From contig JAAOOA010000443.1 of the NCBI GenBank assembly GCA_012861695.1, positions 77,501-141,500 on the forward strand: a stretch of DNA of 64,000 nucleotides, given 5' to 3'. Each line of letters opens with the position of its first letter. The stretch's first letter is position 1. Under the pieces are notes generated by a model. It did not search any database and was not told the DNA's origin. It saw only the letters and a program-made list of their open reading frames with translations. The position numbers and the translations under genes are program-made. Positions 22,233 through 49,908 of the stretch are shown here, piece after piece. The DNA is from Trematomus loennbergii. Taxonomy: Eukaryota; Chordata; Actinopteri; Perciformes; Nototheniidae.

Positions 22233-22802
22233 TTAAGAAAGTTTTCTTTTTTTGCGTCTCCTGTTTCTCTCGAGATAATTCCTCTTTCGTTTTGTGAGTT
22301 TTTGCCGATTGGCCACTCTGGAGATGATTGTGGCTTTTTCCCTCATCTCCTCCAAAGACCGAACACGTGCCTGGTAACCCACTTTGGCCTCAGCCTTTTC
22401 TCCTTCAATCAGCATGTCAATGTAATCTGGAGTGGTCAGAGGGTTAGGCCTCAGGGCAATCTCTTGCAGACGAGTTAAAGAGTGAAATGACTGATCCATG
22501 AGGGACACTATCATCTCTTGGAGGTGATCGATCTCCTCCTCTTGACTCTCAATCAACTCCTGAACAGTCATCTTTTCTTTCGCAGCTTTATTGTACTTGA
22601 CTTTAAGCTTTTCCAGAGTCTGGCTCTCTTTTACTTGTACATAGTCCCAGCTGTATGTCTGGTTTGAATGCAGACTCCAAATGCATTTTCCTGGGCAGAC
22701 AGTGCACCTCCCTGAACTATCCATCGACGCACAGCCACGTTTTTGACTATCGTCCGCTATCTTACACGGGTAGTGGCAGGTAATGGAACAGTTCTGGCAG
22801 TT
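22233..22802 (-). CDS. C-terminal Cys-rich and coiled-coil region
   Basis: Begins with NCQNCSITCHYPC, then after a frame break near 22737 reads CTVCPGKCIW and a long charged coiled coil, ending in a Lys/Arg-rich tail and TAA at 22235-22233. The two Cys clusters could bind metal. This end is what a single-module relative of the family would have after its coiled coil, so it marks the original gene end. The basic tail could be a nuclear-localisation or nucleic-acid-binding signal; that is inference. Confidence 0.75.
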   Translation of the reverse strand, partial: NCQNCSITCHYPCKIADDSQKRGCASMDSSGRCTVCPGKCIWSLHSNQTYSWDYVQVKESQTLEKLKVKYNKAAKEKMTVQELIESQEEEIDHLQEMIVSLMDQSFHSLTRLQEIALRPNPLTTPDYIDMLIEGEKAEAKVGYQARVRSLEEMREKATIISRVANRQKLTKRKRNYLERNRRRKKRKLS

Positions 22803-49800: not shown

Positions 49801-49908
49801 GATCCTTACCAGGGACAAGTGAATCCTGACGGCAGTCGTACAGCATCCCGAGGCTGAATGGCCGCCGAGTGCCGCCACTTCTATTGTTCTGCTTGCTTGA
49901 GAGTCCAT
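22233..49908 (-). CDS. Stonustoxin-family N-terminus fused to ten FN3-FN3-GTPase-coiled-coil modules
   Basis: One minus-strand transcription unit is inferred. A short first exon (49810-49908) and a very long second exon (40939 to 22233) join in phase 1. Order: MACPF-like region, helical region and thioredoxin-like region as in stonustoxin/verrucotoxin proteins; ten tandem modules of two FN3 domains, a P-loop GTPase, an acidic stretch and a coiled coil; then a Cys-rich and coiled-coil C-terminus. The family exists in many non-venomous fish, so a toxin role is not implied. The PRYSPRY domain that ends true stonustoxins is absent. The reading frame as given is broken by many 1-2 bp indels, so it is either a pseudogene or an unpolished assembly of a working gene. 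If intact it would be about 6,300 residues. A cytosolic immune role is my inference from GTPases of this type and the interferon-type motifs upstream. Confidence 0.7.
22803..24474 (-). CDS. Module 10 (last)
   Basis: Two FN3 domains (residues about 1-190), a GTPase with P-loop GATGSGKST (about 250), G3 DTPGFGDTRG (about 320) and a TFADG G4-like motif, an acidic stretch DENSDEDDDDFDE (about 445) and a coiled coil (about 465-530). It differs from inner modules by GIKRD for GIGRD and TIVDTPG for TVVDTPG, and by coiled-coil changes. Indels near 22822, 23287, 23361 and 23908 (2 bp) sum to the missing 5 bp. Confidence 0.8.
24475..26144 (-). CDS. Module 9
   Basis: Same domain order, P-loop near 25378. 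One open frame runs from 25458 through the GTPase, acidic stretch and coiled coil across the joint into module 10. Indels near 25452 (1 bp), 25613 (5 bp) and 25804 (1 bp) sum to the 7 bp missing from 1,677. Confidence 0.85.
26145..27819 (-). CDS. Module 8 (nearly intact)
   Basis: Same domain order, P-loop near 27046. One open frame runs from the preceding coiled coil (28122) through both FN3 domains, the linker and the GTPase to 26596, so the module joint itself is translated without a break. Only two 1-bp deletions (26178 and 26597). FN3 class A, coiled-coil class B. Confidence 0.85.
27820..29488 (-). CDS. Module 7
   Basis: Same domain order, P-loop near 28719. Class A. I count 12 indel sites (near 28130, 28160, 28263, 28329, 28372, 28535, 28595, 29003, 29147, 29251, 29264 and 29425), net minus 8, which accounts exactly for its 1,669-bp length against 1,677. 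Confidence 0.8.
29489..31149 (-). CDS. Module 6
   Basis: Same domain order, P-loop near 30384. FN3 class B, coiled-coil class A. 16 bp below consensus. Indels are visible near 29654, 29776, 29866, 29912, 29948, 30116, 30350, 30415, 30534 and 30713. Confidence 0.75.
31150..32816 (-). CDS. Module 5
   Basis: Same domain order, P-loop near 32041. The stretch 31863-32370, covering the second FN3 end, linker and most of the GTPase, is uninterrupted. FN3 class A, coiled-coil class B (GCATTGAAG). 10 bp below consensus. Confidence 0.75.
32817..34462 (-). CDS. Module 4 (shortest, 31 bp below consensus)
   Basis: Same domain order, P-loop near 33695. FN3 class B. It has the most indels of the array, for example near 32824, 32872, 32949, 32961, 33105, 33217, 33325 and 33650. 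Coding similarity to the other modules stays near complete between the indels. Confidence 0.7.
34463..36128 (-). CDS. Module 3
   Basis: Same domain order, P-loop near 35359. FN3 markers are class B (GGGACTTC, CCACTGAC, ATTTTCAG) and the GTPase-coiled-coil junction carries the class B CCTAGACTCC. Deletions near 34722, 34808, 34851, 34948, 35279 and 35346. Confidence 0.75.
36129..37795 (-). CDS. Module 2
   Basis: Same domain order, P-loop near 37024. Its FN3 markers are mixed between the two sequence classes (GTGACTTC and CCTCTGAC with an ATTTCAG end). Indels are visible near 36347, 36568, 36690 (2 bp), 36838 (2 bp), 37181, 37210 (insertion) and 37480. Confidence 0.75.
37796..39459 (-). CDS. 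Module 1 (first, most divergent at its linker)
   Basis: FN3-FN3-GTPase-acidic-coiled-coil. The P-loop GATGSGKST is near 38694. The FN3-GTPase linker near 38860-38890 differs from all other modules, and the G3 region reads TIVDTPGFGD as in module 10, not TVVDTPGFGD. It is 13 bp short of consensus, with single-base deletions visible near 37873, 37952, 38032, 38071, 38218, 38747 and 38994. Confidence 0.75.
39460..40939 (-). CDS. Stonustoxin-like N-terminal region (exon 2 start)
   Basis: The acceptor TTTGGACAG ends at 40940, then GLTLWDCDDL follows. The region carries the MACPF-like fold of the family, a helical part with LRTQTAKQFPQIGKQLKTF, and a thioredoxin-like part with FAEANKENKNITFLTVGL, before passing into the first FN3 domain at 39459. 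Three frame breaks are seen near 40795 (1 bp), 40655 (1 bp) and 39517 (probably 2 bp). Together they restore the phase expected from exon 1 to the FN3 array. No nonsense substitutions noticed. A low-complexity Pro/Asp stretch (DDAQDPPPPDQW) lies in the thioredoxin-like part, possibly a species-specific insertion. Confidence 0.75.
43400..43510. repeat. Retroposon tail repeat
   Basis: GTTGGAGAAGCCTGTGAC ... TGACAATAAAGAACCTTGAA with a short CCTTGAA tandem, related to 9525-9635. Confidence 0.5.
44248..44716 (-). pseudogene. hAT transposase N-terminal fragment (GTF2IRD2/SCAND3-like)
   Basis: Two frames meet at about 44545. The first reads ICLICNASVALSKKGNL, a BED-like zinc-finger start. After a one-base shift the second reads HKRYETEFPPNSALRSQKVR and YRVSHVLAKHMKSFKDGEV, as in domesticated and wild hAT transposases of the GTF2IRD2/SCAND3/ZBED group. 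It stops after about 150 residues with no catalytic domain, so it is dead. Confidence 0.75.
45795..46080. repeat. Inverted copy of the repeat at 49.36-49.62 kb
   Basis: Block CTACAAGTAATAAGCC ... CCTAATAAGGCAGTAGTACC ... TAGTGTTAATTGTG-type sequence matches 49360-49620 in reverse complement, with small indels. It flanks three younger insertions. Confidence 0.65.
46126..46735 (+). mobile_element. Foldback element, 7-bp target duplication GATATTG
   Basis: Ends CAACCCAGTCTCACGG and CCGTGAGACTGTGTTG. GATATTG is duplicated at 46119-46125 and 46736-46742. 610 bp with about 90-bp subterminal inverted repeats. No transposase. Confidence 0.8.
46873..47490 (-). mobile_element. Foldback element, 7-bp target duplication AACCTGA, inverted
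   Basis: Same family as 46126-46735, in opposite orientation, 137 bp away. AACCTGA is duplicated at 46866-46872 and 47491-47497. Confidence 0.8.
47545..47710. repeat. Short palindrome and GTTAGCAT minisatellite
   Basis: GTAAGTGTAAG/CTTACACTTAC near 47535-47575 forms a hairpin. At 47637-47710 about five units of GCTAGCGTTAGCATAC-type sequence follow. Confidence 0.6.
48343..49350. mobile_element. Element with TAGGGCTGTCAGTCGATTAA start and ACGCGTTA end
   Basis: Begins TAGGGCTGTCAGTCGATTAA and ends with GTTAACGCG / TTAACGCGTTA. It interrupts the inverted repeat at 48312-48342 / 49353-49620, as the uninterrupted order at 45.8-46.08 kb shows. The interior has a long TG tract and GC-rich non-coding sequence. 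Confidence 0.6.
48641..48804. repeat. (TG)n microsatellite, about 80 units
   Basis: Almost perfect, with one TGGTG interruption at about 48765. The longest dinucleotide tract in the window. Confidence 0.95.
49353..49720. repeat. Right copy of the inverted repeat, ends in AAGTGTTACC
   Basis: Reverse complement of 45795-46050, continuing to TTAATATAAAGTGTTACC, the typical end of a fish MITE with GGTAACACTTTA termini. Confidence 0.55.
49810..49908 (-). CDS. First coding exon of the stonustoxin-like GTPase gene
   Basis: ATG at 49908-49906 opens MDSQASRTIEVAALG. After a one-base slip the next frame reads RPFSLGMLYDCRQD, the conserved N-terminal block of the stonustoxin/verrucotoxin family. The donor GTAAGG follows at 49809-49804. 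With the missing base restored in length only, the exon ends in phase 1, which fits the acceptor at 40940. The single-base deletion is near 49864. Confidence 0.75.

What the first reader, a model, noticed from the sequence alone, without database searches (positions are those of the whole stretch)
22233..49908. A stonustoxin-like N-terminus followed by ten in-frame FN3-FN3-GTPase-coiled-coil modules
Seen: P-loop, G3 and acidic motifs recur ten times at about 1.67-kb spacing on one strand, with module joints open in frame (for example the open frame 28122-26596 and the one from 25458 on). The unique N-terminal region is only before module 1 and the unique Cys-rich end only after module 10. Known: fish have stonustoxin-related proteins, and GTPases of the AIG1/GIMAP-like type, usually with one GTPase. 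Inference: internal tandem duplication made a single gene with up to ten GTPase domains, about 6,300 residues. Such a chain could act as a pre-assembled GTPase oligomer. I know of no described protein with this layout.
Basis: partly seen in the sequence, partly recalled or inferred. Interest (0 to 1): 0.9.

Follow-up and report, generated by a model that had tools for sequence, protein, structure and literature searches.

The report
Fish gene with repeated GTPase modules
In a fish genome, a gene related to stonefish-toxin proteins carries ten near-identical copies of an FN3-plus-GTPase block on one contig but only one on what looks like the other chromosome copy, so it is probably a coding block whose copy number varies, and if translated it would make an unusually long chain of GTPases.

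Summary
As assembled they are not one open frame: 95 deletion events against 7 inserted bases, mostly at homopolymers, which I read as long-read consensus errors.

New: contig C373 of the same assembly carries this locus with ONE module, probably the other haplotype. That module mostly has the bases of the family's other members; M1 and M10 keep some of them, M2-M9 few. So a single-module gene was duplicated inside a large exon and expanded by unequal exchange. None of 20 family loci read has two modules.

Best reading: a coding VNTR, in form like the LPA kringle-IV array, in a fish SNTX-FN3-GTPase family, with allele sizes ten and one. Whether a chain of about 6,300 residues is made is untested: no RNA data, and changes between modules show no purifying selection. 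Other fish genomes and protein databases could not be searched.

The parts
49810..49908 (-). candidate exon 1 (ATG at 49908, GT at 49809, both read by eye); start of the stonustoxin-like region
   Evidence: 20-residue match to both stonustoxin chains of PDB 4wvm, E 0.0096 and 0.023; DNA around 49796-49914 matches 9 of 20 family loci at 78-83% and C373:111620-112032 at 93%; sequence. The ATG is not in the frame of the matching piece, so the exon is frame-broken as assembled or the start lies elsewhere.
39461..40939 (-). 5' part of exon 2: stonustoxin-like region (from MACPF-like part to helical and thioredoxin-like domains); AG at 40941-40940 by eye
   Evidence: open piece 40681-39479 matches stonustoxin alpha residues 130-448, E 1.3e-79; Stonustoxin_helical and Thioredoxin_11; sequence. 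Frame-broken as assembled.
37797..39460 (-). module M1 (FN3-FN3-GTPase-acidic stretch-coiled coil)
   Evidence: of 25 clean differences from the array majority 8 are the family-majority base, 16 private, 1 neither
36130..37796 (-). module M2
34464..36129 (-). module M3
32808..34463 (-). module M4 (most deletion events, 19)
31151..32807 (-). module M5
29490..31150 (-). module M6
27821..29489 (-). module M7
   Evidence: the joint M7/M8 lies in the open frame 28131-26599
26146..27820 (-). module M8 (fewest deletion events, 2)
24476..26145 (-). module M9
   Evidence: the joint M9/M10 lies in the open frame 25461-23902
22804..24475 (-). module M10
   Evidence: of 20 clean differences from the array majority 7 are the family-majority base, 10 private, 3 not scorable
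22233..22803 (-). unique Cys-rich and coiled-coil end with the stop codon
   Evidence: open piece 22844-22236; 96% identical at protein level to the end of the single-module copy on C373

Best explanation
The locus is a coding variable-number tandem repeat. The ordinary gene of this fish family has a short exon 1 and one very large exon 2 that encodes stonustoxin-like domains, two FN3 domains, one AIG1-like GTPase with a coiled coil, and a Cys-rich end. In one allele a single duplication inside exon 2 joined the end of the coiled coil in frame to the start of the FN3 pair (1,677 bp, 559 codons). Unequal exchange and gene conversion then raised the number to ten and homogenised the interior, while the other allele kept one module. 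Most likely working (inferred): a cytosolic immune-type protein whose GTPase modules associate in a GTP-dependent way, as is known for AIG1/GIMAP and septin G domains (recalled), so that the long allele would carry ten linked G domains and change the valency of assembly. Shown: DNA layout, domain matches, the single-module copy, the likely direction of change. Inferred: allelism, exon structure, translation as one chain of about 6,300 residues, function.
For: Ten copies between unique ends. The same joint in 7 of 9 cases letter for letter over 60 nt, the other two with deletions. Majority columns 1,677 nt, stop-free in one phase; 0 of 88 clean module differences makes a stop, 4.3% of random ones would. 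95 deletion events against 7 inserted nt; 60 of 70 isolated single-column gap sites lie beside an equal base, against 45% of positions. C373:119158-120811 is one module in DNA sampled as antiparallel to C443 between C373:97000 and 205000; the flank 10300-15800 has two full-length matches, C443 itself and C373 at 99%, among the 40 candidates scored of 13,593. At 15 of 19 scorable differences the C373 module has the family-majority base; M1 keeps 8, M10 7, M2-M9 0-2 each. Clean pairwise differences are 1-13 among M2-M9 and 18-36 between any of M1, M10, the C373 module and every other. Of 20 family loci read, 14 (C373 among them) have one FN3 pair plus one GTPase, 5 FN3 without GTPase, 1 GTPase without FN3, none two modules. 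GTPase dN/dS against 15 loci is 0.20-0.62, 0.24 for the locus with an open 700-codon frame.
Against: No RNA or read-depth evidence. As assembled the frame is broken in nearly every module and in the stonustoxin-like part. Silent share of differences between modules is 19 of 88 (0.216), equal to the random expectation 0.218: no purifying selection visible in the array. Over all ten modules deletion events (95) and private substitutions (79) are of similar number; the excess of deletions holds for M2, M3 and M6-M9 (48 against 10), while M1 and M10 have more private substitutions than deletions and those of M4 and M5 cluster beside gaps. Between C443 and C373 gap events exceed mismatches in only 2 of 7 stretches. 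Substitutions between the contigs are 0.3-0.5% in three stretches on the downstream side but about 1.5-3.5% around the gene and on the upstream side, which is less allele-like; C373:54500-60500 found no match in the C443 pieces held. 16 of 25 M1 and 10 of 20 M10 differences are private, not ancestral. The number ten rests on one assembly.
Confidence: 0.63

Rival explanations
1. C373 and C443 are two loci made by a recent large segmental duplication; the array then belongs to one locus and is not an allelic VNTR.
For: Divergence of about 1.5-3.5% around the gene and on the upstream side, and the unmatched probe C373:54500-60500; the family has many recent copies.
Against: Colinearity in every sampled stretch from C373:97000 to 205000, 0.3-0.5% substitutions in three downstream stretches, and two full-length matches for the flank among the 40 scored candidates. 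Equal-scoring matches on C465/C623 and on C443/C1182/C3121 hint at unpurged haplotypes in this assembly (not followed up).
Confidence: 0.18
2. The array is real but the gene is dead: the frameshifts are true mutations and the array expands as neutral tandem DNA.
For: Frame broken in nearly every module and in the N-terminal part; neutral silent share between modules.
Against: 48 deletion events against 10 private substitutions in M2, M3 and M6-M9; gap sites sit beside equal bases; deletions almost absent in M8; no stop by substitution.
Confidence: 0.14
3. The number ten is an assembly artefact: a shorter array or one module was expanded by the assembler.
For: One unverified assembly with many indels; C373 shows one module.
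Against: Every pair of modules differs by at least one clean substitution; columns 57 and 1240 carry three different bases; M1 and M10 are distinct ends; the C373 module differs by 20 or more from each of the ten.
Confidence: 0.12
4. Splicing or internal starts turn the array into many short products, so no multi-GTPase chain exists.
For: Not testable here; no transcript data.
Against: The joint lies inside coding sequence; in the paralog on C1081 the FN3 pair and the GTPase share one open 700-codon frame. In stonefish four sntx-like genes have exon 2 extended to the stop, with full-length Iso-seq transcripts (PMC10566576, passages).
Confidence: 0.15

Closest known systems
Stonustoxin / SNTX-like genes of fish (PDB 4wvm; PMC10566576)
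   Same: The N-terminal open piece matches stonustoxin alpha and beta (E 1.3e-79 and 7.5e-72); in stonefish such genes have few exons and some a long exon 2; sntx-like genes are expanded also in non-venomous fish (PMC10566576, passages seen)
   Different: No PRYSPRY match in the pieces scanned; FN3 pair, GTPase, coiled coil and Cys-rich end follow instead, ten times on this contig. The words fibronectin and GTPase do not occur in that paper's main text
GIMAP / AIG1 GTPases, GIMAP8 with three G domains (PMC4201521, abstract passage)
   Same: AIG1 is the best Pfam G-domain model in 3 of 4 pieces; several G domains in one chain
   Different: Only positions 1-128 of the 212-position model are matched (45 bits); units linked by FN3 pairs and coiled coils; ten near-identical units instead of three
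Tandem IRG proteins such as Irgb2-b1 of mice (PMC3810784, PMC6420625; search listing only)
   Same: Immunity GTPase units fused in one polymorphic protein (two units: recalled)
   Different: Another GTPase family, no FN3 or stonustoxin part (recalled)
LPA kringle IV type 2 VNTR (PMC11462820, abstract start in the listing)
   Same: Kilobase-sized coding unit with allele-dependent number (5.6 kb, 1-40 units per allele)
   Different: LPA units contain introns (recalled); here the unit lies inside one inferred exon and encodes FN3 and GTPase domains. Only two presumed alleles seen

Membership tests
SNTX-like family | stonustoxin helical (FAT) domain, PF21109 | tested here: met
   3e-35, 120.7 bits against cut-off 27
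SNTX-like family | thioredoxin-like SNTX domain, PF18078 | tested here: met
   3.1e-26, 92.4 bits against cut-off 22.9
SNTX-like family | MACPF/CDC part at the N-terminus | tested here: inconclusive
   the open piece matches stonustoxin alpha from residue 130 on; the earlier part is frame-broken and was not read through
Venom stonustoxin proper | C-terminal PRYSPRY domain | tested here: not met
   no such match at E 0.01 in the 10 pieces scanned, which do not cover every frame-broken part; an FN3 domain follows the thioredoxin-like domain directly in the piece 39537-38803. So it is filed as an SNTX-like relative, not as a stonustoxin
AIG1/GIMAP GTPase | Pfam AIG1 match over the curated cut-off | tested here: met
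   31-46 bits against 27 in 4 of 4 pieces with a G domain, at most positions 1-128 of 212; Septin and MMR_HSR1 also pass their cut-offs
AIG1/GIMAP GTPase | GIMAP-type G4 and G5 motifs and the box between G3 and G4 (recalled) | tested here: inconclusive
   the words VTFADGKQ and FNNSALF occur in 8 of 10 modules each; whether they are the GIMAP motifs was judged by eye; the AlphaFold2 model was unusable (pLDDT 39.2)
Coding VNTR | in-frame unit, one founding joint, number differing between alleles | tested here: inconclusive
   559-codon majority unit and one joint sequence; one against ten modules on two contigs; that these are alleles is inferred

The most novel reading that the evidence does not exclude
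The ten-module allele is transcribed from one 18.7-kb exon and translated into a chain of about 6,300 residues with ten linked GTPases; copy number (one to ten or more) is a heritable dial on the valency of a fish immune GTPase assembly.
Probability: 0.33. Interest if true: 0.88.

Novelty: new variant of a known kind. Interest (0 to 1): 0.68.

Why it matters
Valency is a central variable of GTPase assemblies such as GIMAPs, IRGs and septins, and natural alleles that would vary it alone are not known to me. If alleles of one fish gene differ only in the number of covalently linked G-domain modules, the effect of valency can be tested in siblings. It also shows how gene catalogues can miss such genes: here the array is frame-broken by what look like uncorrected indels and could be called a pseudogene or split into many models.

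Tried and rejected
Pseudogene reading of the frameshifts: considered, set lower because of the indel spectrum in the array; the comparison with C373 supports this only partly. Positive selection on the FN3 pair: dN exceeds dS against several paralogs, but silent differences are few and some values rest on frame-shifted pieces, so I claim only homogenisation. AlphaFold2 on the open piece P0002 alone gave pLDDT 39.2, so no fold search was made. NCBIfam gave only P-loop-type matches below the cut-offs. Pattern FN3a matched 0 of 10 modules because it asked for a residue before the module start; it says nothing. Ten paper searches listed no title or abstract start that describes this layout, and the passages read in five papers do not either; most subscription papers are not in that library. 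No other fish genome or protein database was searched.
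Full report
Setting. The window is contig C443:77501-141500 of a 1.208-Gb assembly in 3,566 contigs. That it is a fish is inferred from the stonustoxin-like family; the species was not identified.

Observation. Self-comparison shows ten direct copies on 22804-39461, 96.7-97.8% identical in the nested alignments. In 10 open pieces scanned with Pfam the piece before module 1 matches Stonustoxin_helical and Thioredoxin_11, three pieces hold the fn3 pair, and four hold a G domain (AIG1 best in three at 6.3e-12 to 8.7e-12; in the fourth Septin 8.9e-11 and MMR_HSR1 3.3e-8 rank before AIG1 1.7e-7). 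The N-terminal piece matches stonustoxin alpha and beta in the PDB. Exact words per module: GATGSGKST 10 of 10, DTPGFGDT 9, VTFADGKQ 8, FNNSALF 8, acidic stretch 8, SPPGKPNVE 9, KEKIKELETAM 7; why single ones are missing was not examined one by one.

Frame. No single open frame exists as assembled: 9 of 10 module lengths are not multiples of three and the longest stop-free piece at 20-52 kb is 520 codons. Counting gaps in columns that at most three modules lack, there are 95 deletion events (M1 to M10: 9, 9, 11, 19, 15, 14, 9, 2, 3, 4) and 7 inserted nucleotides. Of 70 isolated single-column gap sites 60 lie beside an equal base, against 45% of all positions. Private substitutions are 24, 2, 2, 18, 10, 1, 2, 0, 3, 17, in all 79. 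So in M2, M3 and M6-M9 deletions outnumber substitutions 48 to 10, which is unlike decay; M4 and M5 have substitutions clustered beside gaps, M1 and M10 have real extra substitutions. Between C443 and C373 the control is mixed: in seven stretches, gap events and mismatches are 30/29, 20/47, 25/42, 28/35, 10/5, 12/35 and 39/60, and 74 of 122 single-base gaps are in homopolymers. I still read most frame breaks as uncorrected long-read indels. The majority columns give 1,677 nt, stop-free in one phase only. Of 88 clean differences (cells; a shared variant counts once per module) none makes a stop, where 217 of 5,022 random changes would; 19 are silent, share 0.216 against 0.218 at random, so the array shows no purifying selection.

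Gene model (by eye, inferred). Exon 1 at 49908-49810: 20-residue match to 4wvm, DNA matches in 9 of 20 family loci, GT after it. Exon 2 starts at 40939 after an AG and runs to the stop at 22235-22233: 18.7 kb. Sum about 33 + 493 + 5,590 + 189, near 6,300 residues if intact. In stonefish, eight sntx genes have three exons, and four sntx-like genes have exon 2 extended to the stop, with full-length Iso-seq transcripts (PMC10566576, passages).

Second copy of the locus. C373:115000-124500 aligns to the window with upstream non-coding DNA at 93-96% and downstream DNA at 97%, but has one module. Sampled stretches are antiparallel to C443: C373:105000-134500 against window 63391-10219, with unaligned parts between blocks; C373:97000-103000 against C443:148914-142812 (39 mismatches in 2,509 and 102 in 3,572) and C373:199000-205000 against C443:22898-16913 (31 in 6,031). 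Substitutions are thus 0.3-0.5% in three downstream stretches (22 in 5,710 and 6 in 1,791; 31 in 6,031) and about 1.5-3.5% around the gene and upstream. C373:54500-60500 found no match in the C443 pieces held. The flank 10300-15800 has two full-length matches in the genome, itself and C373, among 40 scored of 13,593 candidates. I take C373 as the other haplotype, about 0.8. On checking I lowered this and my confidence a little, because higher divergence is not confined to the gene but includes the upstream side.

Direction. The C373 module differs from the array majority at 22 clean sites: 15 carry the family-majority base, 2 are private, 2 neither, 3 not scorable. M1: 8 ancestral, 16 private, 1 neither. 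M10: 7 ancestral, 10 private, 3 not scorable. M2-M9 keep 1, 1, 0, 0, 0, 0, 2, 0 ancestral bases (20 family loci as reference). Of 14 sites fixed in the array's first 1,000 columns but different from the family majority the C373 module has the array base at 5. Clean pairwise differences are 1-13 among M2-M9 and 18-36 for pairs with M1, M10 or the C373 module. Hence array from single module, interior homogenised, and the C373 copy is not a simple collapse of this array.

Joint. Over 60 nt, 7 of 9 internal joints are letter for letter the same; those at 36130 and 32808 lack bases. The outer junctions differ on one side each. The founding breakpoints share at most a base or two by eye.

Family. 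Twenty stretches of 8.2-9.5 kb around chosen hits were read: 14 with one FN3 pair and one GTPase (C373 among them), 5 with FN3 but no GTPase match (L021, L022, L023, L024, L032), 1 with GTPase without FN3 (L029); none with two modules. The genome search scored 83 of 477 candidates and further loci could not be fetched, so unseen multi-module genes are possible. dN/dS against family members is 0.20-0.62 for the GTPase (15 loci) and 0.45-0.79 for the stonustoxin-like part (19 loci); several values rest on overlapping or frame-shifted pieces.

Function. A stonustoxin-like gene is named in a table of a catfish disease-resistance RNA-seq study (PMC3890627), as upregulated in vaccinated charr (PMC6369366), and in an eQTL and near a viral-load SNP in salmon (PMC7316828); passages seen. 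These are names by annotation and do not tell the architecture. Immune function and GTP-driven assembly are therefore inference.

Verdict. A real and unusual tandem expansion, best read as a coding VNTR with presumed allele sizes ten and one; the giant protein is possible and unproven.

Noticed in passing
FN3 pair, first ~573 bp of each module; family loci L016-L036: The FN3 pair is 95.0-98.6% identical in DNA between M10 and the family loci in which it aligned whole. Identity to M1 in 100-bp bins stays at 88-100% up to about module position 1000 in loci with a GTPase and then falls to 44-81%, except C373. In six loci without gaps FN3 dS is 0.00-0.03 while their SNTX dS is 0.20-0.41. Looks like gene conversion across loci; modules and family loci share several alternative codons.
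   Followed up: partly
L021, L022, L024: Family loci in which the FN3 pair is followed after about 50 bp by a 132-bp piece 96-97% identical to window 22506-22637, without a GTPase match.
   Followed up: no
L018 (C1081:34500-44000) 4679-4828: A piece matching the coiled-coil part (54%) sits inside the FN3 pair, a possible partial internal duplication.
   Followed up: no
window 8457-9228 and 20037-20431: The same 37-bp minisatellite occurs twice in opposite orientation, about 11 kb apart.
   Followed up: no
window 10893-11738: A stretch of about 850 bp found at 38 further scored places in the genome at 95-98% identity (a lower bound), probably a mobile element.
   Followed up: no
window 51097-54798 and 58009-63837: Blocks repeated in inverted orientation at 86-98% identity, upstream of the gene.
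   Followed up: no
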